Shown in pieces: positions 17,071 through 48,598 of a stretch of DNA of 64,000 bases. The position numbers and the translations under genes were made by a program. The notes beneath the pieces are model-generated. The model saw only the letters and a program-made list of their open reading frames with translations. It ran no database searches and was not told where the DNA came from. The stretch lies in contig OZ026515.1 in NCBI GenBank assembly GCA_964019695.1, forward strand, positions 139,187,549 to 139,251,548, written 5' to 3'. Numbering within the stretch: the stretch's first letter is position 1; every line of letters starts with the position of its first letter. The DNA is from Loripinus fragilis. Lineage: Eukaryota > Mollusca > Bivalvia > Lucinida > Lucinidae.

Positions 17071-17700
17071 GCTTATACTTCATACTCCCGGTCCCGAAAT
17101 TCGCCAGCATGTAGCCTACATATATATTGATACTCCGTGCGCCTATCCTCTCTCCTACCCTTCTATAAGATATGCATGATCTTTCAACTCAGCTCAGCTT
17201 ACTCAACTCATCAAGCTGAGCAAAATAAGCATTTTCGCCCTTTTTCGGAGTGAAATTAACCATGCCACCGAGCTCAGGTTACTCAACTCATCCAGCTCAG
17301 CTTACAACTTATGCTACTTAACTTACCTAAGTTGAGTTGGATAAGTTGAACTGTAAGTCAGCGGTCAGTATATTTATAATATATATATATAACTATAACA
17401 AACATACATGTGATAGGTCCCTATATTCTAAGTTCTAAGTTGAGTAAGTTGCCATAGCTGTCTATTATAGCCGCTGAGTTCGGTAAGTTGGGTCTTTAAA
17501 CAATGATATGTATCCAGATGCTTCAATGGCTGAGCTAAGTTCGGTAAGTTATAATAGCTGCGCATATGTTAGGATGAGTTGGTGATATGTGTCCAGATAC
17601 TTCAATGGCTGAGCTAAGTTTGGTAAGTTATAATAGCTGCACATATGTTAGAATGAGTTGGTCATGAGTATAACATTGGACCATTATATGCAGCAAGATG
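17071..17700 (+). repeat. Left outer (terminal) domain
   Basis: The outermost part holds TACTTCATACTCCC at 17,076-17,089, then a pyrimidine-rich tract (17,150-17,166). From 17,188 the motif ACTCAACTCATC runs in the orientation of the right arm until a small palindrome AACTTACCTAAGTT at 17,320-17,333, after which orientation flips to GAGTTGG for the rest of the arm. A direct duplication of about 79 bp (CTTCAATGGCTGAGCTAAGT and flanks) follows at about 17,510-17,665. All of this reappears in reverse complement at 47,640-48,180. About 350-370 bp present at the right end (48,205-48,560) is missing here. Confidence 0.85.
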
Positions 17701-18904
17701 CAAGCTAAGTTCGATGAGTTGAGTAAGCTAAGCAAGCTGAGTTCGATAAGTTAAAAGATAAGTTCGATAAGTTGGATGAGTTGGGTAAGTTCGATGAGTT
17801 GGATAAGTTGAGAATGAGTTGGATGAGTTGAGCTGTTCGATGAGTTGGGTAAGTTGGATGAGTTGGATAAGTTGAGGATGAGTTTGATGAGTTCGCTAAG
17901 TTGGACTGTAAGTTCGATGAGTTGGCTAAGTTGGAATGTAAGTTCGATGAGTTGGCTAAGTTGGAATGTAAGTTCGATGAGTTGGATAAGTTGAGGATGA
18001 GTTCGATGAGTTGGATAAGTTGGACTGTAGATTCGATGAGTTGTCTAAGTTGAGGATGAGTTCGATGAGTTGGATAAGTTGTACTGAAAGTTCGATGAGT
18101 TGGCTAAGTTGGAATGTAAGTTCGATGAGTTGGATAAGTTGAGGATGAGTTCGATGAGTTGGATAAGTTGTACTGTAAGTTGGATGAGTTGGCTAAGTTG
18201 CACTGTAAGTTCGATAATTTGGCTAAGTTGAGGATAAGTTCGATGAGTTGGGTAAGTTGTACTGTAAGTTGGATGAGTTGGCTAAGTTGTACTGTAAGTT
18301 TGATGAGTTGGATAAGTTGTACTGTAATTCGATGAGTTGGCTAAGTTGAGGATGAGTTCGATGAGTTGGATAAGTTGGACGGTAAGTTGGATGAGTTGGA
18401 TAAGTTGAGGATGAGTTCGATGAGTTGGATAAGTTGTACTGTAAGTTGGATGAGTTGGATAAGTTGAGGATGAGCTCGATGAGTTGGCTAAGTTGTACTG
18501 TAAGTTAGATAAGTTGGCTAAGTTGAGGATGAGTTCGATGAGTTGGATAAGTTGTACTTTAAGTTGGATGAGTTGGCTAAGTTGTACTGTAAGTTCGATG
18601 AGTTGGCTAAGTTGAGGATGAGTTCGATGAGTTGGATAAGTTGTACTGTAAGTTGGATGAGTTGGCTAAGTTGTACTGTAAGTTCGATGAGTTGGCTAAG
18701 TTGAGGATGAGTTCGATAAGTTGGGTAAGTTGGAATATAAGTTCGATGAGTTGGCTAAGTTGGAATGTAAGTTCGATGAGTTTGGATAAGTTGTACTGTA
18801 AGTTCGATGAGTTGGCTAAGTTGAGGATGAGTTCGATGAGTTGGCTAAGTTGTACTGTAAGTTGGATGAGTTGGCTAAGTTGGAATGTAAGTTCGATGAG
18901 TTGG

Positions 18905-20860
18905 ATAAGTTGAGGATGAGTTGGATAAGTTGTACTGTAAGTTGGATGAGTTGGCTAAGTTGTACTATAAGTTCGATGAGTTGGCTAAGTTGAGGATGAG
19001 TTCGATAAGTTGGGTAAGTTGTACTGTAAGTTGGATGAGTTGGCTAAGTTGAGGATGAGTTCGATGAGTTGGATAAGTTGTACTTTAAGTTGGATGAGTT
19101 GGCTAAGTTGTACTGTAAGTTGGATGAGTTGGCTAAGTTGTACTGTAAGTTCGATGAGTTGGCTAAGTTGAGGATGAGTTCGATAAGTTGGGTAAGTTGT
19201 ACTGTAAGTTGGATGAGTTGGCTAAATTGTACTGTAAGTTCGATATGTTGGCTAAGTTGAGGATGAGTTCGATAAGTTGGGTAAGTTGGACTGTAAGTTC
19301 GATGAGTTAGATAAGTTGGAATGTAAGTTCGATAAGTTGGCTAAGTTGGAATGCAAGTTCGATGAGTTGGATAAGTTGTACTGTAAGTTCGATGAGTTGG
19401 CTAAGTTGAGGATGAGTTCGATGAGTTGGATAAGTTGTACTGTAAGTTGGATTAGTTGGCTAAGTTGTACTGTAAGTTCGATGAGTTGGCTAAGTTGAGG
19501 ATGAGTTCGATAAGTTGGGTAAGTTGGACTGTAAGTTCGATAAGTTGGCTAAGTTGGAATGTAAGTTGGATGAGTTGGCTAAGTTGTACCGTAAGTTCGA
19601 TGAGTTGGCTAAATTGTACAGTAAGTTGGATGAGTTGGCTAAGTTGTACTGTAAGTTCGATGAGGTGGCTAAGTTGAGGATGAGTTCGATAAGTTGGGTA
19701 AGTTGGAATGTAAGTTCGATGAGTTGGCTAAGTTGGAATGTAAGTTCGATGAGTTGGATAAGTTGTACTGTAAGTTCGATGAGTTGGCTAAGTTGAGGAT
19801 GAGTTCGATGAGTTGGCTAAGTTGTACTGTAAGTTGGATGAGTTGGCTAAGTTGGAATGTAAGTTCGATGAGTTGGATAAGTTGAGGATGAGTTGGATAA
19901 GTTGTACTGTAAGTTGGATGAGTTGGCTAAGTTGTACTATAAGTTCGATGAGTTGGCTAAGTTGAGGATGAGTTCGATAAGTTGGGTAAGTTGTACTGTA
20001 AGTTGGATGAGTTGGCTAAGTTGAGGATGAGTTCGATGAGTTGGATAAGTTGTACTTTAAGTTGGATGAGTTGGCTAAGTTGTACTGTAAGTTGGATGAG
20101 TTGGCTAAGTTGTACTGTAAGTTCGATGAGTTGGCTAAGTTGAGGATGAGTTCGATAAGTTGGGTAAGTTGTACTGTAAGTTGGATGAGTTGGCTAAATT
20201 GTACTGTAAGTTCGATATGTTGGCTAAGTTGAGGATGAGTTCGATAAGTTGGGTAAGTTGGACTGTAAGTTCGATGAGTTAGATAAGTTGGAATGTAAGT
20301 TCGATAAGTTGGCTAAGTTGGAATGCAAGTTCGATGAGTTGGATAAGTTGTACTGTAAGTTCGATGAGTTGGCTAAGTTGAGGATGAGTTCGATGAGTTG
20401 GATAAGTTGTACTGTAAGTTGGATTAGTTGGCTAAGTTGTACTGTAAGTTCGATGAGTTGGCTAAGTTGAGGATGAGTTCGATAAGTTGGGTAAGTTGGA
20501 CTGTAAGTTCGATAAGTTGGCTAAGTTGGAATGTAAGTTGGATGAGTTGGCTAAGTTGTACCGTAAGTTCGATGAGTTGGCTAAATTGTACAGTAAGTTG
20601 GATGAGTTGGCTAAGTTGTACTGTAAGTTCGATGAGGTGGCTAAGTTGAGGATGAGTTCGATAAGTTGAGTAAGTTGGAATGTAAGTTCGATGAGTTGGC
20701 TAAGTTGGAATGTAAGTTCGATGAGTTGGATAAGTTGTACTGTAAGTTCGATGAGTTGGCTAAGTTGAGGATGAGTTCGATGAGTTGGCTAAGTTGTACT
20801 GTAAGTTGGATGAGTTGGCTAAGTTGGAATGTAAGTTCGATGAGTTGGATAAGTTGAGGA
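18905..20860 (+). repeat. 972-bp higher-order duplication in the left arm
   Basis: Landmark variants repeat at a constant 972-bp offset: TGTACTATAAG (about 18,960 and 19,932), GTACCGTAAGTTCG (about 19,586 and 20,558) and the variant TTCGATATGTTGGC (about 19,240 and 20,212). The two copies are almost identical, with GGGTAAG against GAGTAAG near 19,694 and 20,666 as one visible difference. Recent unequal exchange or slippage is the likely origin. Confidence 0.9.
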
Positions 20861-23800
20861 TGAGTTGGATAAGTTGTACTGTAAGTTGGATGAGTTGGCT
20901 AAGTTGTACTGTAAGTTCGATGAGTTGGCTAAGTTGAGGATGAGTTCGATAAGTTGGGTAAGTTGTACTGTAAGTTGGATGAGTTGGCTAAGTTGAGGAT
21001 GAGTTCGATGAGTTGGATAAGTTGTACTTTAAGTTGGATGAGTTGGCTAAATTGTACAGTAAGTTGGATGAGTTGGCTAAGTTGTACTGTAAGTTCGATG
21101 AGGTGGCTAAGTAGAGGATGAGTTCGATAAGTTGGGTAAGTTGTACTGTAAGTTGGATGAGTTGGCTAAGTTGTACTGTAAGTTCGATGAGTTGGCTAAG
21201 TTGAGGATGAGTTCGATAAGTTGGGTAAGTTGGAATATAAGTTCGATGAGTTGGCTAAGTTGGAATGTAAGTTCGATGAGTTGGATAAGTTGTACCGAAG
21301 TTCGATGAGTTGGCTAAGTTGAGGATGAGTTCGATGAGTTGGCTAAGTTGTACTGTAAGTTGGATGAGTTGGCTAAGTTGTACTGTAAGTTGGATGAGTT
21401 GGCTAAGTTGTACTGTAAGTTGGATGAGTTGGATAAGTTGAGGATGAGTTGGATGAGTTGGCTAAGTTGTACTGTAAGTTGGATGAGTTGGCTAAGTTGT
21501 ACTGTAAGTTCGATGAGTTGGCTAAGTTGAGGATGAGTTCGATAAGTTGGGTAAGTTGTACTGTAAGTTGGATGAGTTGGCTAAGTTGTACTGTAAGTTC
21601 GATATGTTGGCTAAGTTGAGGATGAGTTCGATAAGTTGGGTAAGTTGGACTGTAAGTTCGATGAGTTAGATAAGTTGGAATGTAAGTTCGATAAGTTGGC
21701 TAAGTTGGAATGCAAGTTCGATGAGTTGGATAAGTTGTACTGTAAGTTCGATGAGTTGGCTAAGTTGAGGATGAGTTCGATGAGTTGGATAAGTTGTACT
21801 GTAAGTTGGATTAGTTGGCTAAGTTGTACTGTAAGTTCGATGAGTTGGCTAAGTTGAGGATGAGTTTGATAAGTTGGGTAAGTTGGACTGTAAGTTCGAT
21901 GAGTTAGATAAGTTGGAATGTAAGTTCGATAAGTTGGCTAAGTTGGAATGTAAGTTGGATGAGTTGGATAAGTTGTACTGTAAGTTCGATGAGTTGGCTA
22001 AGTTGAGGATGAGTTCGATGAGTTGGATAAGTTGTACTGTAAGTTGGATGAGTTGGCTTAGTTGTACTGTAAGTTCGATGAGTTGGCTAAGTTGAGGATG
22101 AGTTCGATAAGTTGGGAAAGTTGTACTGTAAGTTGGATGAGTTGGCTAAGTTGGAATGTAAGTTCGATGAGTTGGATAAGTTGTACTGTAAGTTCGATGA
22201 GTTGGCTAAGTTGAGGATGAGTTCGATGAGTTGGCTAAGTTGTACTGTAAGTTGGATGAGTTGGCTAAGTTGGAATGTAAGTTCGATGAGTTGGATAAGT
22301 TGAGGATGAGTTGGATAAGTTGTACTGTAAGTTGGATGAGTTGGCTAAGTTGTACTGTTTGTTCGATGAGTTGGCTAAGTTTAGGATGAGTTCGATAAGT
22401 TGGGTAAGTTGTACTATAAGTTCGATGAGTTAGATTAGTTGGAATGTAAGTTCGATGAGTTGGCTAAGTTGGAATGTAAGTTCGATGAGTTATATAAGTT
22501 GAGGATGAGTTCGATGAGTTGGCTAAGTTGTACTGTAAGTTGGATTAGTTGGCTAAGTTGCACTGTAAGTTCGATGAGTTGGCTAAGTTGAGGATGAGTT
22601 CGATGAGTTGGATAAGTTGTACTGTAAGTTGGATGAGTTGGGTAAGTTGTACTGTAAGTCGGATGAGTTGGCTAAGTTGAGGATGAGTTTGATGAGTTGG
22701 GTAAGTTGTACTGTAAGTTGGATGAGTTGGCTAAGTTGTACTGTAAGTTCGATGAGTTGGCTAAGTTGAGGATGAGTTCGATAAGTTGGGTAAGTTGTAC
22801 TGTAAGTTGGATGAGTTGGCTAAGTTGAGGATGAGTTCGATGAGTTGGATAAGTTGTACTGTAAGTTGGATGAGTTGGCTAAGTTGTACTGTAAGTTGGA
22901 TGAGTTGGCTAAGTTGTACTGTAAGTTCGATGAGTTGGCTAAGTTGAGGATGAGTTCGATGAGTGGCTAAGTTGTACTGTAAGTTGGATGAGTTGGCTAA
23001 GTTGTACTGTAAGTTCGATGAGTTGGCTAAGTTGAGGATGAGTTCGATAAGTTGGGTAAGTTGTACTGTAAGTTGGATGAGTTGGCTAAGTTGAGGATGA
23101 GTTCGATGAGTTGGATAAGTTGTACTGTAAGTTAGATGAGTTGGCTAAGTTGTACTGTAAGTTCGATGAGTTGGCTAAGTTGAGGATGAGTTCGATAAGT
23201 TGAGTAAGTTGGAATATAAGTTCGATGAGTTGGCTAAGTTGGAATGTAAGTTTGATGAGTTTGGATAAGTTGTACTGTAAGTTCGATGAGTTGGCTAAGT
23301 TGAGGATGAGTTCGATGAGTTGGCTAAGTTGTACTGTAAGTTGGATGAGTTGGCTAAGTCGGAATGTAAGTTCGATGAGTTGGATAAGTTGAGGATGAGT
23401 TGGATAAGTTGTACTGTAAGTTGGATGAGTTGGCTAAGTTGTACTGTAAGTTCGATGAGTTGGCTAAGTTGAGGATGAGTTCGATAAGTTGGGTAAGTTG
23501 TACTGTAAGTTGGATGAGTTGGCTAAGTTGAGGATGAGTTCGATGAGTTGGATAAGTTGTACTGTAAGTTGGATGAGTTGGCTAAGTTGTACTGTAAGTT
23601 GGATGAGTTGGCTAAGTTGAGGATGAGTTCGATGAGTTGGATAAGTTGTACTGTAAGTTGGATGAGTTGGCTAAGTTGTACCTTAAGTTCGATGAGTTGG
23701 CTAAGTTGAGGATGAGTTCGATAAGTTGGGTAAGTTGGAATATAAGTTCGATGAGTTGGCTAAGTTGGAATGTAAGTTCGATGAGTTGGATAAGTTGTAC

Positions 23801-25251
23801 TGTAAGTTCGATGAGTTGGCTAAGTTGAGGATGAGTTCGATGAGTTGGCTAAGTTGTACTGTATGTTGGATGAGTTGGCTAAGTTGGAATGTAAGTTCGA
23901 TGAGTTGGATAAGTTGAGGATGAGTTGGATAAGTTGTACTGTAAGTTGGATGAGTTGGCTAAGTTGTACTGTAAGTTGGATGAGTTGGCTAAGTTGAGGA
24001 TGAGTTCGATCAGTTGGGTAAGTTGTACTATAAGTTCGATGAGTTAGATAAGTTGGAATGTAAGTTCGATGAGTTGGCTAAGTTGGAATGTAAGTTCGAT
24101 GAGTTGGATAAGTTGAGGATGAGTTCGATGATTTTGCTAAGTTGTACTGTAAGTTGGATAAGTTGGCTAAGTTGCACTGTAAGTTCGATGAGTTGGCTAA
24201 GTTGAGGATGAGTTCGATGAGTTGGATAAGTTGTACTGTAAGTTGGATGAGTTGGCTAAGTTGTACTGTAAGTTCGATGAGTTGGCTAAGTTGAGGGTGA
24301 GTTTGATGAGTTGGGTAAGTTGTACTGTAAGTTGGATGAGTTGGCTAAGTTGAGGATGAGTTCGACAAGTTGGGTAAGTTGTACTGTAAGTTGGATGAGT
24401 TGGCTAAGTTGAGGATGAGTTCGATGAGTTGGATAAGTTGTACTGTAAGTTGGATGAGTTGGCTAAGTTGTACTGTAAGTTGGATGAGTTGGCTAAGTTG
24501 TACTGTAAGTTCGATGAGTTTGCTAAGTTGAGGATACATTCGATGAGTTGGCTAAGTTGTACTGTAAGTTGGATGAGTTGGCTAAGTTGTACTGTAAGTT
24601 CGATGAGTTGGCTAGGTTGAGGATGAGTTCGATAAGTTGGGTAAGTTGTACTGTAAGTTCGATGAGTTGGCTAAGTTGAGGATGAGTTCGATGAGTTGGA
24701 TAAGTTGTACTGTAAGTTAGATGAGTTGGCTAAGTTGTACTGTAAGTTCGATGAGTTGGCCTAGTTGAGGATGAGTTCGATAAGTTGAGTAAGTTGGAAT
24801 ATAAGTTCGATGAGTTGGCTAAGTTGGAATGTAAGTTCGATGAGTTTGGATAAGTTGAACTGTAAGTTCGATGAGTTGGCTAAGTTGAGGATGAGTTCGA
24901 TGAGTTGGCTAAGTTGTACTGTAAGTTGGATGAGTTGGCTAAGTCGGAATGTAAGTTCGATGAGTTGGATAAGTTGAGGATGAGTTCGATAAGTTGTACT
25001 GTAAGTTGGATGAGTTGGCTAAGTTGTACTGTAAGTTCGATGAGTTGGCTAAGTTGAGGATGAGTTCGATAAGTTGGGTAAGTTGTACTGTAAGTTGGAT
25101 GAGTTGGCTAAGTTGAGGATGAGTTCGATGAGTTGGATAAGTTTTACTTTAAGTTGGATGAGTTGGCTAAGTTGTACTGTAAGTTGGATGAGTTGGCTAA
25201 GTTGTACTGTAAGTTCGATGAGTTGGCTAAGTTGAGGATGAGTTCGATGAG

Positions 25252-28200
25252 TTGGATAAGTTGTACTGTAAGTTGGATGAGTTGGCTAAGTTGTACTGTA
25301 AGTTCGATGAGTTGGCTAAGTTGAGGATGAGTTCGATAAGTTGGGTAAGTTGGAATACAAGTTCGATGAGTTGGCTAAGTTGGAATGTAAGTTCGATGAG
25401 TTGGATTAGTTGTACTGTAAGTTCGATGAGTTGGCTAAGTTGAGGATGAGTTCGATGAGTTGGCTAAGTTGTACTGTAAGTTGGATGAGTTGGCTAAGTT
25501 GGAATGTAAGTTCGATGAGTTGGATAAGTTGAGGATGAGTTGGATAAGTTGTACTGTAAGTTGGATGAGTTGGCTAAGTTGTACTGTTAGTTCGATGAGA
25601 TGGCTAAGTTGAGGATGAGTTCGATAAGTTGGGTAAGTTGTACTGTAAGTTGGATGAGTTGGCTAAGTTGAGGATGAGTTCGATGAGTTGGATAAGTTGT
25701 ACTTTAAGTTGGATGAGTTGGCTCAGTTGTACTGTAAGTTGGATGAGTTGGCTAAGTTGTACTGTAAGTTCGATGAGTTGGCTAAGTTGAGGATGAGTTC
25801 GATAAGTTGGGTAAGTTGTACTGTAAGTAGGATGAGTTGGCTAAGTTGTACCGTAAGTTCGATGAGTTGGCTAAGTTGAGGATGAGTTCGATAAGTTGGG
25901 TAAGTTGGAATGTAAGTTCGATGAGTTGGCTAAGTTGGAATGTAAGTTCGATGAGTTGGATAAGTTGTACTGTAAGTTCGATGAGTTGGCTAAGTTGAGG
26001 ATGAGTTCGATGAGTTGGCTAAGTTGTACTGTAAGTTGGATGAGTTGGCTAAGTTGGAATGTAAGTTCGATGAGTTGGATAAGTTTAGGATGAGTTGGAT
26101 AAGTTGTACTGTAAGTTGGATGAGTTGGCTAAGTTGTACTGTAAGTTCGATGAGTTGGCTAAGTTGAGGATGAGTTCGATAAGTTGGGTAAGTTGTACTG
26201 TAAGTTGGATGAGTTGGCTAAGTTGAGGATGAGTTCGATGAGTTGGATAAGTTGTACTTTAAGTTGGATGAGTTGGCTAAGTTGTACTGTAAGTTGGATG
26301 AGTTGGCTAAGTTGTACTGTAAGTTCGATGAGTTGGCTAAGTTGAGGAAGAGTTCGATAAGTTGGCTAAGTTGTACTGTAAGTTCGATGAGTTGGCTAAG
26401 TTGTACTGTATGTTCGATGAGTTGGCTAAGTTGAGGATGAGTTCGATAAGTTGGGTAAGTTGGAATATATGTTCGATGAGTTGGCTAAGTTGGAATGTAA
26501 GTTCGATGAGTTGGCTAAGTTGAGGAATAGTTCGATGAGTTGGCTAAGTTGTACTGTAAGTTCGATGAGTTGGCTAAGTTGTACTGTAAGTTGGATGAGT
26601 TGGCTAAGTTGTACTGTAAGTTCGATGAGTTGGCTAAGTTGAGGATGAGTTCGATAAGTTGGGTAAGTTGTACTGTAAGTTGGATGAGTTGGCTAAGTTG
26701 TACTGTAAGTTCGATGAGTTGGCTAAGTTGAGGATGAGTTCGATAAGTTGGGTAAGTTGGAATATAAGTTCGATGAGTTGGCTAAGTTGAATGTAAGTTC
26801 GATGAGTTGGATAAGTTGTACTGTAAGTTCGATGAGGTGGCTAAGTTGAGGATGAGTTCGATGAGTTGGCTAAGTTGTACTGTAAGTTGGATTAGTTGGC
26901 TAAGTTGGAATGTAAGTTCGATGAGTTGGATAAGTTGAGGATGAGTTCGATAAGTTGTACTGTAAGTTGGATGAGTTGGCTAAGTTGTACTGTAAGTTCG
27001 ATGAGTTGGCTAAGTTGCGGATGAGTTTGATAAGTTGGGTAAGTCGTACTGTAAGTTGGATGAGTTGGCTAAGTTGTACTGTAAGTTCGATGAGTTGGCT
27101 AAGTTGAGGATGAGTTCGATAAGTTGGGTAAGTTGGAATATAAGTTCGATGAGTTGGCTAAGTTGGAATGTAAGTTCGATGAGTTGGATAAGTTGTACTG
27201 TAAGTTCGATGAGTTGGCTAAGTTGAGGATGAGTTCGATGAGTTGGCTAAGTTGTACTGTAAGTTGGATGAGTTGGCTAAGTTGTACTGTAAGTTGGATG
27301 AGTTGGCTAAGTTGTACTGTAAGTTCGATGAGTTGGCTAAGTTGAGGATGAGTTCGATAAATTGGGTAAGTTGTACTGTAAGTTGGATGAGTTGGCTAAG
27401 TTGTACTGTAAGTTCGATGAGTTGGCTAAGTTGAGGATGAGTTCGATAAGTTGGGTAAGTTGGAATATAAGTTCGATGAGTTGGCTAAGTTGGAATGTAA
27501 GTTCGATGAGTTGGATAGTTGTACTGTAAGTTCGATGAGTTGGCTAAGTTGAGGATGAGTTCGATGAGTTGGCTAAGTTGTACTGTAAGTTGGATGAGTT
27601 GGCTAAGTTGGAATGTAAGTTCGATGAGTTGGATAAGTTGAGGATGAGTTCGATAAGTTGTACTGTAAGTTGGATGAGTTGGCTAAGTTGTACTGTAAGT
27701 TCGATGAGTTGGCTAAGTTGAGGATGAGTTCGATAAGTTGGGTAAGTTGTACTGTAAGTTGGATGAGTTGGCTAAGTTGAGGATGAGTTCGATGAGTTGG
27801 ATAAGTTGGAATGTAAGTTCGATAAGTTGGCTTAGTTGGAATGTAAGTTCGATGAGTTGGATAAGTTGCACTGTAAGTTCGATGAGTTGGCTAAGTTGAG
27901 GATGAGTTCGATGAGTTGGCTAAGTTGTACTGTAAGTTGGATGAGTTGGCTAAGTTGGAATGTAAGTTCGATGAGTTGGATAAGTTGAGGATGAGTTGGA
28001 TAAGTTGTACTGTAAGTTGGATGAGTTGGCTAAGTTGTACTGTAAGTTCGATGAGTTGGCTAAGTTGAGGATGAGTTCGATAAGTTGGATAAGTTGTACT
28101 ATAAGTTCGATGAGTTAGATAAGTTGGAATGTAAGTTCGATGAGTTGGCTAAGTTGGAATGTAAGTACGATGAGTTGGATAAGTTGAGGATGAGTTCCAT

Positions 28201-36082: not shown

Positions 36083-36111
36083 GCTTCTTGCATTTTATGA
36101 AAATTGTGTTG

Positions 36112-36520: not shown

Positions 36521-37190
36521 GCCCTGACAATAGATACTAGCTGGGTTTAAATATCTGATTCGAAATTTGTATGCGGAAAAAAGTATTAAAAGCTATGGCG
36601 CGACGACATAGTCTTTTTTATTTTTCACACTTCAAAAGAACCAAACATCTCATGGGCTGGCTCTTGTACATACATGTATATATTGTTTGAATGATCTATA
36701 ATGTCGTACAAATAAGGTTGATCTTAAACAGACTGCTGTTGGAGATAAAGTCTGTTTAGGTTTACATTATTTGTAGTTATAAAATCAGACTCCGATTTGG
36801 CCAAATTAGAATAAATTATGATAAATGCGTGATAATTTGTTTACGCTTGTATTTCTATATGGACACAAATAATACTTAACACCGTGTGGAGTCTGCGGAT
36901 GTATAAATTATCCAAAATTCTATACGAAAAAAACACAACAAAACGGCCTGCGAACGGTTGTAATGAAAACTTATGGAAATTTCAGTTCACTGTGATTTCT
37001 TTAAGTTTTCTTTATAACAAGACCTAGTCATACCTCCTCGTTTGGTGCAGGCTGGAAACTATGGGTTTGGTGAGCATTCCACGTCCATAGGCTAACATGA
37101 CAGGTCGACTGCAATAACTTGTTGGTATTTTTATCATTTTAATTTCCCAACACTGCTTAATTATCTAGCGTATCGCAGGAATAATAATTA
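36521..37190. other. Loop, unassigned sequence
   Basis: AT-rich, no credible open frame, no recognisable transposase and no repeat shared with the arms. This is part of the central loop of the giant element. Confidence 0.5.
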
Positions 37191-38210
37191 TCAACTCATT
37201 TTCTTCATACGAGTTACTTTATACCTATACAAACAAAGCAGTCTCGTCATAGGTCAAAATACAATGTGCGTTTCGGTAATTCAACTACTTGCAATGAGTC
37301 TTAAAATTGTGTTTCGGTAATTCACTCATAGTGCGTTTCGGTTTCAGATGGGTCATCTATATCTTCTTTCATAAGACAGCTACTTCTTGAAACGAGGATT
37401 TGTTTTATATACAAAATTAAGTAATAAAAATATAGAAATATGAAAATATATAAATAGCAATTTATTTATGTTCAACATCAGACCATAAAACAGTTTTTTT
37501 TAAAGTTATATTCTGTTCAGTTAAAGAACATGTACAATTATCTGAATAGCTATTTGAAACTGTCAGATATTGTACGTGGTCTCTCCTGTCAACAATCGTA
37601 TTGCAACTAATTATCATTATAAAAACTCATCATCATCATCATCATCATTCCTTTCAGATTATCTTATTTTTTACTTTTTCCATCTTCATCATGTTTAGTT
37701 TAATACCGTCTGACGCTAATGACCCACAAGGGTTGATGCGTCGTTAAGAAACAAAAAAAATAAACAAAAAACAAACAAACAAACAAACAAACAAACAAAA
37801 ACAACATAGGCCTACAGTTCCGTTTCGGTAATTAAAATGCTTTCAGTCATGACATTTATATCCGTTGACTTTTAATCTACAGGTGTTTTTTCCTTTTTTT
37901 TATATAATTTATTTTGATATTAGTTATTTTCTGTTAATCATACAAACAAAACAGTCTCAAATCGCAAGATAACGTTAATACAAAGTGCGTTTCGGTAATT
38001 CAACTACTTTCAACGGATCTCATTTACGCAACTGAATACGCTTTGGTAATTGAACGGTTTTCAACTTATCACCCATATCTTTTTCTTTAATTAGTACAGA
38101 TATAAAAAGCTTCTTCTTAAAACAAATGCACAATTATCTTATATATTAAAAAAAATCAAAACAATCTATGCTTATTTGACGCACAGTTGCATTTCGGTAA
38201 ATAAAGCTTT
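37190..38210 (+). repeat. Diverged repeats with TTTCGGTAATT motif
   Basis: The motif TTTCGGTAATT or a close variant occurs at 37,271, 37,312, 37,336, 37,823, 37,990, about 38,044 and 38,192. Larger blocks repeat at about 720 bp: CATACAAACAAA...CAGTCTC... then GTGCGTTTCGGTAATTCAAC near 37,225-37,290 and again near 37,940-38,005. Each block is followed by a CATATCTTC-type or ATATCTTTTTC tract and a stretch with CTTCTTGAAAC or CTTCTTAAAAC. It is an old, partly decayed direct duplication restricted to the loop. Confidence 0.75.
37626..37800 (+). repeat. CAT microsatellite and possible retroelement tail with (CAAA)n
   Basis: A short (CAT)n lies at about 37,627-37,647. At about 37,705-37,746 the phrase CGTCTGACGCTAATGACC and GGGTTGATGCGTCGTTAAG is followed by A-rich and CAAA repeats to 37,800. 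A conserved block running into a simple tail is how 3' ends of SINEs or RTE-like LINEs look, but I cannot name the family. Confidence 0.5.
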
Positions 38211-38249
38211 CCGTTATAGTGATATATTTTCTTTCTGTAATTAGTATTA

Positions 38250-38404
38250 AGGGAATATATCTTTCAAAAGCTCTTACTTGCATGAACTTTAGAGAAACCC
38301 ATTTGCATGAACATGATCTACAATAATTCGACTACAATATTTAGAAGTATTTTCGCCCAAAATGTACAAATTTCTAGCAGAAAAATATATATTTTCGATT
38401 TTGG
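38250..38404 (+). repeat. Dispersed repeat shared with 61,225-61,610
   Basis: Landmarks GCTCTTACTTGCATGAA, GCATGAACATGATCTACA, CGACTACAATATTTAGAAG and TATTTTCGCCCAAAATGTAC match the segment near 61,245-61,600 at many positions. It ends where the right minisatellite arm starts. Either a mobile repeat landed at the loop-arm border, or the giant element and the downstream locus share ancestry. Confidence 0.8.
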
Positions 38405-40857
38405 CTTATGAACTTAGCCAACTCATCCAACTTACACTACAACTTATCCATCTCATCGAACTCATCCTCAACTTAGCCAACTTATCCAACTTACAGTACA
38501 ACTTAGCCAACTCATCGAACTCATCCTCAACTTATCCAACTCATCCAATTTACAGTACAACTTATCCAACTCATCGAACTCATCCTCAACTTATCCAACT
38601 CATCCAACTTACCGTCCAAATTATCCAACTCATCGAACTCATCCTCAACTTAACCAACTCATCGAACTTACAGTACAACTTATCCAACTCATCCAACTTA
38701 CCGTCCAACTTATCCAACTCATCGAACTTATATTCCAACTTAGCCAACTCATCCAACTTACAGTACAACTTATCCAACTCATCGAACTCATCTTCAACTT
38801 AGCCAACTCATCAAACTTACAGTACAACTTAGCCAACTCATCGAACTCATCCTCAACTTATCCAACTCATCCAACTTACAGTACAACTTATCCAACTCAT
38901 CCTCAACTTATCCAACTCATCAGACTTACAGTACAACTTATCCAACTCATCGAACTCATCCTTAACTTATCCAACTCATCCAACTTACCGTCCAACTTAG
39001 CCAACTCATCCAACTTACAGTACAACTTACCCAACTTATCGAACTCATCCTCAACTTAGCCAACTCATCCAACTTACAGTACAACTTACCCAACTCATCG
39101 AACTCATCCTCAACTTAGCCAACTCATCCAACTTACAGTACAACTTATCCAACTCATCCAAGTTACAGTACAACTTATCCAACTCAACGAACTTACAGTA
39201 CAACTTAGCCAACTCATCCAACTTACAGTACAACTTACCCAACTCATCGAACTCATCCTCAACTTAGCCAACTCATCCAACTTACAGTACAACTTAGCCA
39301 ACTCATCCAACTTACAGTACAACTTATCCAACTCATCCTCAACTTATCCAACTCATCGAACTTACATTCCAACTTAGCCAACTCATCCAACTTACAGTAC
39401 AACTTAGCCAACTCATCGAACTCATCCTCAACTTAGCTAACTCATCGAACTTAGAGTACAACTTATCCAACTCATCGAACTTACATTCCAACTTAGTCAA
39501 CTCATCGAACTTACATTCCAACTTACCCATTTTATAGAACTCATCCTCAACTTAGCCAACTCATCGAACTTACAGTTTAACTTAGCCAACTCATCGAACT
39601 TACAGTACAACTTATCCAACTCATCCAAGTTACAGTACAACTTCTCCAACTCATCGAACTTACAGCACAACTTAGCCAACTCATCCAACTTACAGTACAA
39701 CATATCCAACTCATCGAACTCATCCTCAACTTATCCAACTCATCGAACTTACATTCCAACTTAGCCAACTCATCCAACTTACAGTACAACTTATCTAACT
39801 CATCCTCAACTTATCCAACTCATCGAACTTACATTCCAAAATAGCCAACTCATCCAACTTACAGTACAACTTATCTTACTCATCGAACTCATCCTCAACT
39901 TAGCCAACTCATCAAACTTACAGTACAACTTAGCCAACTCATCCTCAACTTATCAAACTCATCCAACTTACAGTACAACTTATCCAACTCATCGAACTCA
40001 TCCTAAACTTATCCAACTCATCCAACTTACCGTCCAACTTATCCAACTTATCGAACTCATCCTCAACTTAGCCAACTCATCGAACTTACAGTACAACTTA
40101 GCCAACTCATCCAACTTACAGTACAACTTATCCAACTCATCCAACTTACAGTACAACTTATCCAACTCATCGAACTCATCCTCAACTTAGCCAACTCATC
40201 CAACTTACAGTACAACTTACCCAACTTATCGAACTCATCCTCAACTTAGCCAACTCATCGAACTTACAGTACAACTTAGCCAACTCATCCAACTTACAGT
40301 ACAACTTATCGAACTCATCCTCAACTTATCCAACTCATCGAACTTACATTCCAACTTAGCCAACTCATCCAACTTACAGTACAACTTAGCCAACTCATCG
40401 AACTCATCCTCAACTTAGCCAACTCATCGAACTTACAGTACAACTATCCAACTCATCGAACTTACATTCCAACTTAGCCAACTCATCGAACTTATATTCC
40501 AACTTACCCAACTTATCGAACTCATCCTCAACTTAGCCAACTCATCGAACTTACAGTACAACTTAGCCAACTCATCCAACTTACAGTACAACTTACCCAA
40601 TTTATCGAACTCATCCTCAACTTAGCCAACTCATCGAACTTACAGTACAACTTAGCCAACTCATCCAACTTACAGTACAACTTAGCCAACTCATCCAACT
40701 TACAGTACAACTTAGCCAACTCATCGAACTCATCCTCAACTTAGCCAACTCATCGAACTTACAGTACAACTTATCCAACTCATCGAACCCATCCTCAACT
40801 TATCCAACTCATCCAACTTACCGTCCAACTTATCCAACTCATCGAACTCATCCTCAA

Positions 40858-43800
40858 CTTATCCAACTCATTGAACTTACAGTCCAACTTAGCCAACTCA
40901 TCGAACTTACATTCCAACTTATCTAACTCATCGATTTTACAGTACAACTTACCTAACTTATCGAACTCATCCTCAACTTAGCCAACTCATCGAACTTACA
41001 GTACAACTTAGCCAACTCATCCAACTTACAGTACAACTTATCCAACTCATCGAACTCATCCTCAACTTAGCCAACTCATCGAACTTACAGTACAACTTAG
41101 CCAACTCATCCAACTTACAGTACAACTTAGCCAACTCATCCAACTTACCATACAACTTATCCAACTCATCGAACTCATCCTCAACTTAGCCAACTCATCC
41201 AACTTACAGTACAACTTACCCAACTTATCGAACTCATCCTCAACTTAGCCAACTCATCGAACTTACAGTACAACTTAGTCAACTCATCCAACTTACAGTA
41301 CAACTTATCCAACTCATCCTCAACTTATCCAACTCATCGAACTCATCCTTAACTTAGCCAACTCATCCAACTTACAGTACAACTTAGCCAACTCATCCAA
41401 CGTAAAGTACAACTTATCCAACTCATCGAACTCATCCTCAACTTAGCCAACTCATCCAACTTACAGTACAACTTACCCAACTTATCGAACTCATCCTCAA
41501 CTTAGCCAACTCATCGAACTTACAGTACAACTTAGCCAACTCATCCAACTTACAGTACAACTTATCCAACTCATCCTCAACTTATCCAACTCATCGAACT
41601 CATCCTCAACTTAGCCAACTCATCCAAATTACAGTACAACTTAGCCAACTCATCGAACTCATCCTCAACTTAGCAAACTCATCTAACTTACCGTACAACT
41701 TATCCAATTCATCGAACTTACATTCCAACTTAGCCAACTCATCCAACTTACAGTCCAACTTACCCAACTTATCGAACTCATCCTCAACTTAGCCAACTCA
41801 TCAAACTTACATTACAACTTAGCCAACTCATCCAACTTACAGTACAACTTACCCAACTTATCGAACTCATCCTCAACTTAGCCAACTCATCGAACTTACA
41901 GTACAACTTAGCCAACTCATCCAACTTACAGTACAACTTAGCCAACTCATCCAACTTAAAGTACAACTTATCCAACTCATCGAACTCATCCTCAACTTAG
42001 CCAACTCATCGAACTTACAGTACAACTTACCCAACTTATCGAACTCATCCTCAACTTAGCCAACTCATCGAACTTACAGTACAACTTAGCCAACTCATCC
42101 AACTTACAGTACAACTTATCAAACTCATCCTCAACTTATCCAACTCATCGAACTTACATTCCAACTTAGCCAACTCATCCAACTAACAGTACAACTTAGC
42201 CAACTCATCGAACTCATCCTCAACTTAGCAAACTCATCGAACTTACATTCCAACTTATCCAACTCATCGAACTTACATTCCAACTTAGCCAACTCATCGA
42301 ACTTACATTCCAATTTACCCAACTTATCGAACTCATCCTCAACTTAGCCAACTCATCGAACTTACAGTACAACTTAGCCAACTCATCCAACTTACAGTAC
42401 AACTTATCCAACTCATCGAACTCATCCTCAACTTAGCCAACTCATCGAACTTACATTCCAACTTAGCCAACTCATCCAACTTACAGTACAACTTATCCAA
42501 CTCATCGAACTCATCCTCAACTTAGCCAACTTATCAAACTTACAGTACAACTTAGCCAACTCAACGAACTCATCCTCAACTTATCCAACTCATCCAACAT
42601 ACAGTACAACTTATCCAACTCATCGAACTCATCCTCAACTTATCCAACTCATCCAACTTACCGTCCAACTTATCCAACTCATCGAACTCATCCTCAACTT
42701 AGCCAACTCATCGAACTTACAGTACAACTTATCCAACTCATCAAACTTACAGTACAACTAAGCCAACTCATCCAACTTACAGTACAACTTATTCAACTCA
42801 TCGAACTTACAGTACAACTTAGCCAACTCATCGAACTTACAGTACAACTTACCCAACTTATCGAACTCATCCTCAACTTAGCCAACTCATCGAACTTACA
42901 GTACAACTTAGCTAACTCATCCAACTTACAGTACAACTTACCCAACTCATCCTCAACTTAGCCAACCCATCGAACTTACAGTACAACTTAGCCAACTCAT
43001 CCAACTTACAGTACAACTTATCCAACTCATCGAACTCATCCTAAACTTATCCAACTCATCCAACTTACCGTCCAACTTATCCAACTTATCGAACTCATCC
43101 TCAACTTAGCCAACTCATCGAACTTACAGTACAACTTAGCCAACTCATCCAACTTACAGTACAACTTATCCAACTCATCCAACTTACAGTACAACTTATC
43201 CGACTCATCGAACTCATCCTCAACTTAGCCAACTCATCCAACTTACAGTACAACTTACCCAACTCATCGAACTCATCCTCAACTTAGCCAACTCATCCAA
43301 CTTACAGTACAACTTAGCCAACTCATCCAACTTACAGTACAACTTATCCAACTCATCCTCAACTTATCCAACTCATCGAACTTACATTCCAACTGAGCCA
43401 ACTCATCCAACTTACAGTACAACTTAGCCAACTCATCGAACTCATCCTCAACTTAGCCAACTCATCGAACTTACAGTACAACTTATCCAACTCATCGAAC
43501 TTACATTCCAACTTAGCCAACTCATCCAACTTACAGTACAACTTATCCAACTCATCGAACTCATCCTCAACTTAGCCAACTCATCAAACTTACAGTACAA
43601 CTTAGCCAACTCATCGAACTCATCCTCAACTTATCCAACTCATCCAACTTACAGTACAACTTATCCAACTCATCGAACTCATCCTCAACTTATCCAACTC
43701 ATCCAACTTACCGTCCAACTTATCCAACTCATCGAACTCATCCTCAACTTATCCAACTCATTGAACTTACAGTCCAACTTAGCCAACTCATCGAACTTAC

Positions 43801-44640
43801 ATTCCAACTTATCTAACTCATCGATTTTACAGTACAACTTACCTAACTTATCGAACTCATCCTCAACTTAGCCAACTCATCGAACTTACAGTACAACTTA
43901 GCCAACTCATCCAACTTACAGTACAACTTATCCAACTCATCGAACTCATCCTCAACTTAGCCAACTCATCGAACTTACAGTACAACTTAGCCAACTCATC
44001 CAACTTACAGTACAACTTAGCCAACTCATCCAACTTACCATACAACTTATCCAACTCATCGAACTCATCCTCAACTTAGCCAACTCATCCAACTTACAGT
44101 ACAACTTACCCAACTTATCGAACTCATCCTCAACTTAGCCAACTCATCGAACTTACAGTACAACTTAGCCAACTCATCCAACTTACAGTACAACTTATCG
44201 AACTCATCCTCAACTTATCCAACTCATCGAACTCATCCTCAACTTAGCCAACTCATCCAACTTACAGTACAACTTAGCCAACTCATCCAACTTAAAGTAC
44301 AACTTATCCAACTCATCGAACTCATCCTCAACTTAGCCAACTCATCCAACTTACAGTACAACTTACCCAACTTATCGAACTCATCCTCAACTTAGCCAAC
44401 TCCTCGAACTTACAGTACAACTTAGCCAACTCATCCAACTTACAGTACAACTTATCCAACTCATCCTCAACTTATCCAACTCATCGAACTCATCCTCATC
44501 TTAGCCAACTCATCCATATACAGTACAACTTAGCCAACTCATCGAACTCATCCTCAACTTAGCAAACTCATCTAACTTACCGTACAACTTATCCAATTCA
44601 TCGAACTTACATTCCAACTTAGCCAACTCATCGAACTTAC
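40858..44640 (-). repeat. 2.89-kb higher-order duplication in the right arm
   Basis: Rare variants recur at a constant offset of about 2,890 bp: TCATTGAACTTACAGTCC (about 40,868 and 43,758), ATCGATTTTACAGTAC (about 40,931 and 43,821), CAACTTACCATACAAC (about 41,144 and 44,034) and ATCTAACTTACCGTAC (about 41,680 and 44,570). The copies contain a few substitutions and unit changes. Confidence 0.88.
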
Positions 44641-47050
44641 ATTCCAACTTACCCAACTTATCGAACTCATCCTCAACTTAGCCAACTCATCGAACTTACA
44701 TTCCAACTTAGCCAACTCATCCAACTTACAGTACAACTTATCCAACTCATCGAACTCATCCTCAACTTAGCCAACTCATCGAACTTACAGTACAACTTAT
44801 CCAACTCATCGAACTTACATTCCAACTTAGCCAACTTATCGAACTTACATTCCAACTTATCTAACTCATCGAACTTACAGTCCAACTTACCCAACTTATC
44901 GAACTCATCCTCAACTTAGCCAACTCATCGAACTTACATTACAACTTAGCCAACTCATCCAACTTACAGTACAACTTACCCAACTTATCGAACTCATCCT
45001 CAACTTAGCCAACTCATCGAACTAACAGTACAACTTAACCAACTCATCCAACTTACAGTACAACTTAGCCAACTCATCCAACTTACCATACAACTTATCC
45101 AACTCATCGAACTCATCCTCAACTTAGCCAACTCATCCAACTTACAGTACAACTTACCCAACTTATCGAACTCATCCTCAACTTATCCAACTCATCGAAC
45201 TTACAGTACAACTTAGCCAACTCATCCAACTTACAGTACAACTTATCCAACTCATCCTCAACTTATCCAACTCATCGAACTTACATTCCAACTTAGCCAA
45301 CTCATCCAACTTACAGTACAACTTAGCCAACTCATCGAACTCATCCTCAACTTAGCAAACTCAAATAATTTACAGTACAACTTATCCAACTCATCGAACT
45401 TACATTCCAACTTATCCAACTCATCCAACTTACCGTCCAACTTATCCAACTCATCGAACTCATCCTCAACTTAGCCAACTCATCAAACTTACAGTACAAC
45501 TTAGCCAACTCATCGAACTTACAGTACAAATTAGCCAACTCATCCAACTTACAGTACAACTTATCCAACTCATCCTCAACTTATCCAACTCATCGAAATT
45601 ACATTCCAACTTAGCCAACTCATCCAACTTACAGTACAACTTAGCCAACTCATCGAACTCATCCTCAACTTAGCAAACTCATCGAACTTACATTCCAACT
45701 TATCCAACTCATCGAACTTACATTCCAACTTAGCCAACTCATCGAACTTACATTCCAACTTACCCAACTTATCGAACTCATCCTCAACTTAGCCAACTCA
45801 TCGAACTTACAGTACAACTTAGCCAACTCATCCAACTTACAGTACAACTTATCCAATTCATCGAACTCATCCTCAACTTAGCCAACTCATCGAACTTACA
45901 TTCCAACTTAGCCAACTCATCCAACTTACAGTCCAACTTACCCAACTTATCGAACTCATCCTCAACTTAGCCAACTCATCAAACTTACATTACAACTTAG
46001 CCAACTCATCCAACTTACAGTACAACTTACCCAACTTATCGAACTCATCCTCAACTTAGCCAACTCATCGAACTTACAGTACAACTTAGCCAACTCATCC
46101 AACTTACAGTACAACTTAGCCAACTCATCCAACTTAAAGTACAACTTATCCAACTCATCGAACTCATCCTCAACTTAGCCAACTCATCGAACTTACAGTA
46201 CAACTTACCCAACTTATCGAACTCATCCTCAACTTAGCCAACTCATCGAACTAACAGTACAACTTAGCCAACTCATCCAACTTACAGTACAACTTATCAA
46301 ACTCATCCTCAACTTATCCAACTCATCGAACTTACATTCCAACTTAGCCAACTCATCCAACTAACAGTACAACTTAGCCAACTCATCGAACTCATCCTCA
46401 ACTTAGCAAACTCATCGAACTTACATTCCAACTTATCCAACTCATCGAACTTACATTCCAACTTAGCCAACTCATCGAACTTACATTCCAACTTACCCAA
46501 CTTATCGAACTCATCCTCAACTTAGCCAACTCATCGAACTTACAGTACAACTTAGCCAACTCATCCAACTTACAGTACAACTTATCCAACTCATCGAACT
46601 CATCCTCAACTTAGCCAACTCATCGAACTTACATTCCAACTTAGCCAACTCATCCAACTTACAGTACAACTTATCCAACTCATCGAACTCATCCTCAACT
46701 TAGCCAACTTATCAAACTTACAGTACAACTTAGCCAACTCAACGAACTCATCCTCAACTTATCCAACTCATCCAACATACAGTACAACTTATCCAACTCA
46801 TCGAACTCATCCTCAACTTATCCAACTCATCCAACTTACCGTCCAACTTATCTGACTCATCGAACTCATCCTCAACTTAGCCAACTCATCGAACTTACAG
46901 TACAACTTAACCAACTCATCAAACTTACAGTACAACTAAGCCAACTCATCCAACTTACAGTACAACTTATTCAACTCATCGAACTTACAGTACAACTTAG
47001 CCAACTCATCGAACTTACAGTACAACTTATCCAACTCATCGAACTCATCC
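41780..47050 (-). repeat. 4.18-kb-offset duplication in the right arm
   Basis: The blocks 41,784-42,900 and 45,962-47,070 align at a 4,178-bp offset. Shared rare variants include TCATCAAACTTACATTAC, CCAACTAACAGTACAAC, ATCCAACATACAGTAC and TTATTCAACTCATCG. This overlaps the 2.89-kb duplication, so at least two expansion events are recorded. Confidence 0.88.
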
Positions 47051-47574
47051 TCAACTTAGCCAACTCATCGAACTTACAGTACAACTTAGCTAACTCATCC
47101 AACTTACAGTACAACTTACCCAACTCATCCTCAACTTAGCCAACCCATCGAACTTACAGTACAACTTAGCCAACTCATCCAACTTACAGTACAACTTATC
47201 CAACTCATCGAACTCATCCTTAACTTAGCCAACTCATTGAACTTACAGTACAACTTATCCAACTCATCCAACTTACCGTCCAACTTATCCAACTCATCGA
47301 ACTCATCCTCAACTTATCCAACTCATCGAACTTACATTCCAACTTAGCCAACTCATCGAACTTACATTCAAACTTATCTAACTCATCGAACTTACAGTAC
47401 AACTTACCCAACTTATCGAACTCATCCTCAACTTATCTAACTCATCCAACTTACCCAACTCATCGAACAGCTCAACTCATCCAACTCATCGAACTCATTC
47501 TCAACTCATCCAACTCATCGAACTTATTCTCAACTTATCCAACTCATCGAACTTACCCAACTCATCCAACTTAT

Positions 47575-48598
47575 CTTTTAACTTATCGAACTCAGCTTGC
47601 TTAGCTTACTCAACTCATCGAACTTAGCTTGCATCTTGCTGCATATAATGGTCCAATGTTGTACTCATGACCAACTCATCCTAACATATGCGCAGCTATT
47701 ATAACTTACCGAACTTAGCTCAGCCATTGAAGCATCTGGACACATATCACCAACTCATCCTAACATATGCGCAGCTATTATAACTTACCGAACTTAGCTC
47801 AGCCATTGAAGCATCTGGATACATATCATTGTATAAAGACCCAACTTAGCGAACTCATCGGCTATAATGGACAGCTATGGCAACTTACTCAACTTAGAAC
47901 TTAGAATATAGGGACCTATCATATGTATGTTTGTTGTTTATAAATATACTGACCGCTGACTTATAGTTCAACTTATCCAACTCAACTTAGGTAAGTTAAG
48001 TAGCATAAGTTGTAAGCTGAGCTGGATGAGTTGAGTAAGCTGAGCTGAGTGGTATAGGTATCTTGTCCGGAAAAAGTGGCGAAAATTGCTTATTTTGCTC
48101 AGCTTGATGAGTTGAGTAAGCTGAGCTGAGTTGTAAGTCATATGAAAGAAATAAAAGGGGCGGAGGGAGGGTAGACACACAGTGTATCATAATATATACA
48201 TGTAGCTATTGTAACTCATCAAACTTAGCTCAGGGCTCTCTTGTAACATTGCCGTTGTTTAAAGGCCTAACTTACCGAACTCATCTGTTATAATGGACAG
48301 CTATGGCAACTTACTTAACTTAGAACTTAAAATCGGGACCTTTCATATGTATGTGATATCTCAATAGAATATATGTACAGTCTATTCATTTCAGTCATTT
48401 TTGTCCCGAAATTATTTGGTCTATAGAAATACATGGGGACTCCTGTGGGCTACGTACTTCATACTCCGTGTCCTGAAATTTACTGTCTACGTTTAATAGA
48501 TGAATATTGTGAAAATTATGCTGAGATACTTTGTGTCTTAGTATATTGCATAGGCATGCGCCTGGGACAGAATTCGGGACAGGGAGTATGAAGTACCT
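47575..48598 (-). repeat. Right outer (terminal) domain with duplicated module
   Basis: From 47,575 to 48,132 this is the reverse complement of 17,188-17,760, including the 79-bp direct duplication (units starting near 47,672 and 47,751), the orientation-switch palindrome AACTTAGGTAAGTT at 47,984-47,997 and the flipped TCATCAAGCTGAGC-type motifs. Beyond it, 48,205-48,355 is a second, diverged copy of the 47,820-47,930 module (GGACAGCTATGGCAACTTAC). The outermost 150 bp form their own inverted pair: GTACTTCATACTCCGTGTCC near 48,449 and GGACAGGGAGTATGAAGTAC ending at 48,596. Confidence 0.85.

What the first reader, a model, noticed from the sequence alone, without database searches (positions are those of the whole stretch)
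17071..48598. Giant Foldback-like element of about 31.5 kb with compound minisatellite arms
Two very long inverted arms (about 17.7 and 10.2 kb including end domains) made of the same 29/30-bp repeats flank a 3.66-kb loop, and the outermost non-array ends are also inverted copies of each other. Established knowledge: Drosophila FB elements have inverted termini of tandem repeats built from 10- and 11-bp sub-units that become more complex inward, around a variable loop. The same design is visible here at roughly ten times the usual scale and in a probable mollusc. Inference: this is a non-autonomous giant foldback transposon or its descendant.
Basis: partly seen in the sequence, partly recalled or inferred. 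Interest (0 to 1): 0.92.

Follow-up and report, generated by a model that had tools for sequence, protein, structure and literature searches.

The report
Giant palindromic minisatellite jumping element
This 31.5-kb stretch is one copy of a family of giant jumping DNA elements (11 to 48 kb end to end in the 15 copies measured, with probably several hundred copies in this 2-billion-base genome) built mostly from a 29/30-base repeat in two opposed arms; 13 of the 15 copies sit between exact 8-base duplications, and the family likely moves with an enzyme borrowed from another, still unknown element.

Summary
The element is 17,070-48,601 (31,532 bp), with terminal inverted repeats starting GGC, flanked by the 8-bp direct repeat TAATCTTA. 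In the window's own genome (1.99 Gb) both outer ends are high-copy: 431 (left) and 402 (right) first-look candidates, of which the best 40 each were scored, giving 40 near full-length matches each at 98-100%. Left and right ends pair into 15 elements of 11.2-48.1 kb; 13 of 15 have exact 8-bp target duplications, two match at 7 of 8. TSDs from 52 sites lean to a palindromic CAWATTTG. Besides the window, 7 of the 15 were read whole: 86-97% minisatellite in two opposed arms; five have no loop, one keeps about 100 bp, one has 1.2 kb. The window's 3.67-kb loop is thus unusual in this sample. Two elements with different TSDs share one loop-less central junction, so the palindrome most simply moved whole. 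It works like, and structurally is, a non-autonomous foldback transposon, with arms up to about ten times those of published elements I read. No transposase was found; the superfamily is open. New variant of a known kind.

The parts
17062..17069 (.). 8-bp target-site duplication TAATCTTA, left
   Evidence: exact direct repeat with 48602-48609; an adjacent match of >=8 bp in 4 of 20,000 random site pairs, within +-5 bp in 16 of 4,000
17070..17098 (+). left terminal inverted repeat GGCTTATACTTCATACTCCCGGTCCCGAA
   Evidence: GGC start in 28 of 28 parsed left ends of other copies (30 fetched, 2 with variants in the search word)
17070..17756 (+). left end domain (L type), non-array but already holding the array motif
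   Evidence: 39 other near full-length matches at 98-99% in own genome; strict motif 5 in 687 bp, + strand only
17757..34743 (+). left arm: 29/30-bp minisatellite, 9+9+11/12-bp sub-units
   Evidence: 702 strict motifs
27870..33886 (+). recent 3,101-bp higher-order duplication in left arm (27870-30785 and 30971-33886; 1 mismatch in 2,916 bp)
27174..27808 (+). 635-bp block identical, inverted, to 40154-40788 in the right arm
   Evidence: longest in 60 unit-Markov nulls 230 bp
34744..38410 (.). central loop of this copy, no coding capacity found
34741..36012 (.). 153-bp tandem repeats in the loop (two arrays, 34741-35474 and 35543-36012)
   Evidence: also on other contigs (P0001, P0005)
38411..47575 (-). 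right arm, same minisatellite inverted
   Evidence: 387 strict motifs
47576..48197 (-). right end domain, inner part, inverted homologue of the left end domain
   Evidence: 90.5% to 17120-17756
48198..48601 (-). right end domain, outer part (R type), absent from the left end
   Evidence: 39 other matches at 98-99% over at least 402 of 404 bases in own genome; terminal hairpin z -6.33
48455..48477 (+). extra internal copy of the terminal repeat (2 mismatches), inverted to the true end
48573..48601 (-). right terminal inverted repeat GGCAGGTACTTCATACTCCCTGTCCCGAA
   Evidence: GCC end in 29 of 29 parsed right ends (30 fetched, 1 with a variant in the search word)
48602..48609 (.). 8-bp target-site duplication TAATCTTA, right

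Best explanation
This is a copy of a multi-copy family of giant foldback DNA transposons whose ends (98-100% alike in the scored copies) sit between 8-bp target duplications (exact in 13 of 15), and it likely moves by cut-and-paste with a DDE-type transposase supplied in trans. SHOWN: fixed left (L) and right (R) ends beginning GGC; 8-bp duplications; unrelated flanks; opposed minisatellite arms of about 1.9-18 kb in the copies read; a loop that is absent, vestigial or different in other copies; one loop-less central junction shared by two elements at different sites. INFERRED: from that shared junction, that both arms travelled together; that the transposase binds the terminal repeats and probably the RAGTTSGRTR motif, which lies in the end domains and is multiplied to about 1,100 copies in this element's arms; that the array began as a duplication inside the end domain, grew by slippage and unequal exchange, and turns over faster than the ends; that loops are trimmed away at the palindrome centre by deletion.
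For: Ends high-copy in own genome: 431 and 402 candidates, best 40 of each scored, giving 40 matches each at 98-100% over at least 688 of 690 or 402 of 404 bases, the window included. 15 L-R elements: 13 exact 8-bp TSDs, 2 at 7 of 8. 52 insertion sites share a palindromic-leaning TSD: C at position 1 in 26, A at 2 in 33, A at 4 in 32, T at 5 in 30, T at 7 in 31, with T at -3 in 41 of 60 symmetrised flanks. Seven other L-R elements read whole have the same plan, 86-97% array. C11 and C5a share one loop-less junction, 65 of 67 bases, 32 of them an exact run across the switch, but have different TSDs (AATATATA, GTCTTTGG); no other pair of the seven loci whose switch could be compared shares 20 or more. 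C6 and C17c share a loop edge, 99.3% over 138 bp. Independent protein-database check: 12 of 13 end-bearing ORFs lose homology, to the codon, at the predicted TIR start; the best flank-to-flank match has E 0.084. Strict motif seeded in the end domains: 5 + 6 copies, all in array orientation, against 2 in about 32 kb of flanks.
Against: No transposase or autonomous partner was found, so 'in trans' and 'DDE' are inferred. Transposase binding to the motif is untested. The searches scored only the best 40 of about 400 candidates, so identity and completeness are biased to young, intact copies. Seven of the 15 L-R elements, the two longest (37 and 48 kb) among them, were not read inside and could hold nested insertions. 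One composite locus (C20, two L ends plus an internal R end) has no TSD. One other element, C17c, has a right arm of only about 1.9 kb, hardly longer than published foldbacks. The window's 635-bp inter-arm identity suggests exchange between arms, but in the other five elements compared the two arms share at most 134-306 bp, no more than arms of different elements (up to 347 bp), and within-element position tests are not significant (window 25, C17 160, C18 64, C6 140 of 200 rotations). Same-side arms of different elements keep their order clearly in only 3 of 11 pairs (at most 2 of 200); C18/C11 right arms gave 199 of 200.
Confidence: 0.9

Rival explanations
1. A host minisatellite that became a palindrome by inversion, with no transposition; ends are chance or segmental duplicates.
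For: Arms are typical minisatellite with recent higher-order duplications; satellites can disperse by recombination.
Against: Precise, conserved ends with exact 8-bp TSDs in 13 of 15 elements and unrelated flanks.
Confidence: 0.02
2. Assembly artefact: inverted collapse of array reads.
For: Exact blocks up to 2,915 bp within an arm and 635 bp between arms are hard for assemblers; array lengths may be off.
Against: The window's two end domains differ by about 10%; the same plan recurs at 7 other loci, each with an 8-bp TSD exact or at 7 of 8.
Confidence: 0.03
3. Rolling-circle (Helitron/Helentron) carriers of satellite arrays, as known in oysters.
For: Non-autonomous Helentrons carry satDNA-like arrays in Crassostrea gigas (PMC7492417, title and abstract start seen in the listing only).
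Against: This family has terminal inverted repeats and 8-bp target duplications; Helitrons are recalled to have neither.
Confidence: 0.01
4. Same transposon, but the arms are passive passengers: slippage and unequal exchange grow them, with no role in transposition.
For: Arms share only 6-27% of 60-mers between six elements compared while the scored ends are 98-100% alike; lengths vary widely.
Against: The strict array motif sits in the end domains in array orientation, and in Galileo repeats inside the long TIRs bind the transposase THAP domain (PMC3688188: abstract, passages and Discussion read).
Confidence: 0.45

Closest known systems
Drosophila Foldback (FB) elements
   Same: Long inverted arms of short tandem sub-units, variable or absent loop, no own transposase in most copies, short target duplications (FB details recalled)
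   Different: Arms up to 18 kb here; separate non-array end domains; 8-bp rather than the recalled 9-bp TSD; arrays do not reach the tips
Tetris of Drosophila virilis (PMC4079207, passages read)
   Same: Flanking domain, tandem-repeat outer domain, variable middle; non-autonomous; 8-9 bp TSDs in the complete copies; array repeat thought to derive from the flanking domain
   Different: Tetris TIRs reach 1,735 bp with ~220-bp repeats and three structurally complete copies; here 29/30-bp repeats, arms up to about tenfold longer, probably hundreds of copies
Galileo (P superfamily; PMC3688188 and PMC3573991, passages and one section read)
   Same: Long internally repetitive TIRs; repeats bind the transposase THAP domain; longest TIRs in non-autonomous copies
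   Different: Longest TIRs about 1,260 bp; 7-bp TSD; transposase known
Tm1 Mutator/Foldback of root-knot nematodes (PMC3169594, passages read)
   Same: Composite TIRs with ~14-bp tandem repeats and asymmetric terminal motifs; 8-10 bp TSDs
   Different: Some members encode a putative transposase; no minisatellite arms of this size in the passages read
MULEs with multiple TIRs in plants (PMC3310237, abstract and outline read)
   Same: Extra TIR copies, as in the R-type end here
   Different: No foldback minisatellite arms mentioned in the abstract
Ising TE of Drosophila (PMC6431247, passage read)
   Same: Very large unit moved with foldback elements
   Different: Composite: hundreds of kilobases of host DNA between foldback elements, not one element made of repeat arms

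Membership tests
Foldback transposons (structural class) | Long inverted arms built of tandem repeats | tested here: met
Foldback transposons (structural class) | Mobile: several loci with the same ends, unrelated flanks, target duplications | tested here: met
Foldback transposons (structural class) | Variable loop between the arms | tested here: met
   none in 5 of 7, about 100 bp in 1, 1.2 kb in 1, 3.67 kb in the window
   only the outer ~150 bp differs
Mutator superfamily | 8-11 bp TSD (recalled) and a MULE transposase | tested here: inconclusive
   8-bp TSD fits; no transposase in the window ORFs given to Pfam; no genome-wide transposase search was run
hAT superfamily | 8-bp TSD | tested here: met
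hAT superfamily | TSD pattern nTnnnnAn (recalled) | tested here: not met
   position 2 is A in 33 of 52, position 7 is T in 31 of 52
P superfamily | THAP/P transposase | not tested
   no partner element found; no transposase search of the genome was run
Helitron/Helentron | No TIR and no TSD (recalled) | tested here: not met
   both present

The most novel reading that the evidence does not exclude
The standing, mobile form of this family is a loop-less palindrome of nearly pure minisatellite, tens of kilobases long, that transposes whole; its body is a platform of roughly a thousand transposase-binding motifs that wins the borrowed enzyme from its own source, and so has spread to hundreds of copies and about 0.5% of the genome. 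That would make it the largest single-unit foldback transposon family described and a direct source of satellite DNA.
Probability: 0.4. Interest if true: 0.88.

Novelty: new variant of a known kind. Interest (0 to 1): 0.78.

Why it matters
The foldback arms whose lengths I saw in papers reach 1.3-1.7 kb; here palindromes of 11-32 kb were read whole with target duplications, and end-to-end spans go to 48 kb. That makes open questions testable: how a hairpin-prone palindrome tens of kilobases long survives replication and transposition, whether repeat arms pay for length by extra transposase binding (as proposed for Galileo), and how transposons seed minisatellite and satellite DNA. Ends about 1% apart beside arms that share little 60-mer content also give a rare clock for array turnover.

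Tried and rejected
Coding reading: the arrays and 153-bp repeats are open in several frames but this is periodicity; the 303-aa loop ORF hits DUF4694 (E 1.9e-9, above its cut-off) as a repeated short match, and its clear database relative P0001 is the same repeat on another contig, so I did not treat it as a gene. Pfam on six loop ORFs: nothing above cut-off. Viral collection scans for the TIR, array and loop repeat: 0; prokaryote contigs for the TIR: 0. TIR and array letters in paper text: one paper listed, on Brucella, not opened. General inter-arm gene conversion: suggested by the window's 635-bp block, not borne out in the other elements. The looser position test separated pairs poorly and was replaced. 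There 17 pairs were tested: 11 same-side (W/C17 0 and 2 of 200, C18/C6 right 0, the rest 5, 5, 8, 11, 16, 38, 52 and 199), 2 cross-side (8 and 18) and 4 within-element (25, 64, 140, 160); C17 was singled out because it shares most 60-mers with the window, so I do not claim general order conservation of the arms. Literature searches for a giant foldback: no listed title or abstract start describes foldback arms of this size; subscription papers and preprints are not held. The loop search in the own genome (window 36100-38280, and once 34760-36080) did not complete, and no transposase family search of the genome was made.
Full report
WHAT IS IN THE WINDOW. Two arrays of one minisatellite face each other: 17,757-34,743 and, inverted, 38,411-47,575, around 3,667 bp of other sequence. 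The unit is a 29- or 30-mer made of 9 + 9 + 11/12-bp sub-units, each starting AGTT. Outside each array lies a non-array end domain; the two are inverted copies, 90.5% over 639 columns, rising inward from 79% to 100%. The tips match over 29 bp, GGC(TTA/AGG)TACTTCATACTCCC(G/T)GTCCCGAA, at 17,070 and 48,601, and directly outside them stands the same 8-mer TAATCTTA. Random site pairs in the flanks give an adjacent direct repeat of 8 or more in 4 of 20,000, and within 5 bp of both points in 16 of 4,000. So the boundaries 17,070-48,601 were set from the window alone, before any copy was seen.

FIRST INDEPENDENT TEST. With the genome tool unreachable, I used the protein database as a DNA probe. A query made of four translated pieces of the end domains hit 13 predicted ORFs. 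Eight right-type ends (P0010-P0015, P0017, P0022) and four left-type ends (P0016, P0018, P0019, P0021) lose homology, to the codon, at the predicted tip and run on into other sequence; the best match between two flanks has E 0.084. The thirteenth, P0020, starts inside the element. Array or loop translations hit 8 other proteins beside the window's own P0002. Two of them, P0001 and P0005, carry the loop's 153-bp repeat; in P0004 the array follows a dispersed repeat that also lies at 60,829-61,038 (80%). All these are predicted ORFs from contigs whose species I was not shown.

THE OWN GENOME. At the genome answered: 1,987,113,829 bases, 685 contigs, window at C2:139187549-139251548. The left end gave 431 first-look candidates, of which 40 were scored: the window plus 39 near full-length matches at 98-99%; two further rows were partial. 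The right outer end gave 402 candidates, 40 scored: the window plus 39 at 98-99%, with 33 secondary partial rows. Eight left ends differ by 0.6% on average (0 to 1.0%) and their 1.5-kb flanks show no similarity. These are best-scoring copies, so this age is biased young.

PAIRED ELEMENTS. From the two lists I picked, by eye, every facing L-R pair within 50 kb (14 with the window); one more, C6, came from walking inward. These 15 measure 11,236 to 48,149 bp, mean 26.8 kb. Exact 8-bp duplications flank 13 of 15: the window, C11, C18, C6, C17 and 8 of the 10 further pairs. The other two, C232 and C9, match at 7 of 8. Seven of the 15 (C19, C232, C17b, C12, C5b, C1, C11b) are known only by their ends. 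A sixteenth locus, C20, is a composite with two L ends and an internal R end and has no duplication. If most candidates are elements of this mean size, the family fills about 10 Mb, 0.5% of the genome; that is an extrapolation.

TARGET SITES. Of the 80 scored ends I fetched 60-base stretches of 60 (30 left, 30 right, 10 pairs among them). Three did not hold the exact search word and were left out of the first count, which with the five elements above gives 52 sites: the duplicated 8-mer leans to CAWATTTG. With a looser word all 60 were placed, and the flanks add T at -3 on the symmetrised strand in 41 of 60. A weak palindromic target is what a symmetric DDE transposase complex would give (inference). 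Position 2 is mostly A and 7 mostly T, against the hAT pattern as I recall it.

ANATOMY OF OTHER COPIES. Seven further L-R elements were read whole: C11, C18, C6, C17, C9, C17c, C5a. All have L domain, arms, R domain; array fraction is 0.86-0.97. Five (C11, C18, C17, C9, C5a) switch from one arm to the other with a gap of 4-9 bp; C6 has 103 bp between; C17c has 1.2 kb of loop, a 0.5-kb interruption in one arm and a right arm of only about 1.9 kb. C6's remnant matches the left edge of C17c's loop, 99.3% over 138 bp including some array, which suggests that loops are lost from the centre. C11 and C5a share the same loop-less junction, 65 of 67 bases with a 32-base exact run across the switch, while their target duplications differ; in C11 that junction occurs twice. 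No other pair of the seven loci whose switch could be compared (C20 included, C17c not) shares 20 bases across it. A shared central scar at two sites most simply means that the palindrome travelled whole.

ARMS VERSUS ENDS. In six elements compared, arms share only 6-27% of their 60-mers between elements although the scored ends are 98-100% alike, so arrays turn over far faster. Order along the arm is kept between the window and C17 on the same side (0 and 2 of 200 rotations reach the observed value) and between C18 and C6 right arms (0), but not clearly in the other 8 of 11 same-side pairs, and not at all in C18/C11 right (199); cross-side pairs gave 8 and 18. The two arms of one element are no more alike by position than chance (window 25, C17 160, C18 64, C6 140 of 200). 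The window has one 635-bp block identical between its arms (nulls reach 230 bp), so inter-arm exchange probably happened here; in the other five elements the longest is 306 bp. The window's left arm also holds a fresh 3,101-bp duplication.

MECHANISM. Shown: unit ends, target duplication, loop variation, shared central junction, unequal conservation of ends and arms. Inferred: cut-and-paste by a transposase in trans; motif RAGTTSGRTR as a secondary binding site. The strict motif occurs 5 and 6 times in the two end domains, always in array orientation, 702 and 387 times in the arms and twice in about 32 kb of flanks; the looser core RAGTT is also enriched in the end domains but on both strands. 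In Galileo, repeats within long TIRs bind the transposase, and multiple sites were proposed to offset length (PMC3688188). In Tetris the array repeat is thought to have arisen from the flanking domain (PMC4079207). The same route is likely here. The right tip also carries an inverted second copy of the terminal repeat that folds strongly as DNA (z -6.33); the 404-bp domain that holds it is kept in the 39 other scored right ends, comparable with plant MULEs with multiple TIRs (PMC3310237 abstract).

PLACE AMONG KNOWN THINGS. By structure and mobility it is a foldback transposon. It differs in scale (arms up to 18 kb against about 1.26 kb in Galileo and 1.7 kb in Tetris), in separate asymmetric end domains and in being often loop-less. 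Superfamily is open: no transposase was found in the window ORFs tested and no transposase search of the genome was made.

Noticed in passing
48615-48837: A MITE-like repeat bounded by TTAA sits about 14 bp outside the element's right end; an inverted relative lies at 1130-1340 (73%).
   Followed up: no
14394-14756: Separate 42-bp tandem array (8.6 copies, 91% matches), not matching the element's repeats.
   Followed up: no
55583-55910: (TAC)n at 55583-55664 and (GTA)n at 55857-55910, inverted to each other, flank a tRNA-like match at 55675-55746 (Rfam 38.3 bits) that ARAGORN did not call.
   Followed up: partly
3455-3910: Two short ORFs that look like mariner-type transposase pieces (recalled resemblance; Pfam gave only HTH_58 at E 0.21 for one of them).
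   Followed up: no
36115-36290 in the loop: Dispersed repeat with relatives at 10606-10842 and in the C17c loop.
   Followed up: partly
L025-L027 (C20:4850054-4872766): Composite: L end, short array, internal R end in the same orientation, two arms, inverted L end; array also outside the left end; no target duplication.
   Followed up: partly
L009-L011 (C11 element): The arm-to-arm junction occurs twice, with inverted array segments between, as if a piece holding the palindrome centre was duplicated.
   Followed up: partly
P0014, P0017: Two insertions lie in what look like copies of one reverse-transcriptase gene (recalled resemblance, no Pfam hit); P0017 seems to read across the site where P0014 is interrupted, on a 7-residue overlap only.
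   Followed up: no
P0013: One insertion lies beside a PC4 coactivator domain (Pfam E 1.2e-10).
   Followed up: no
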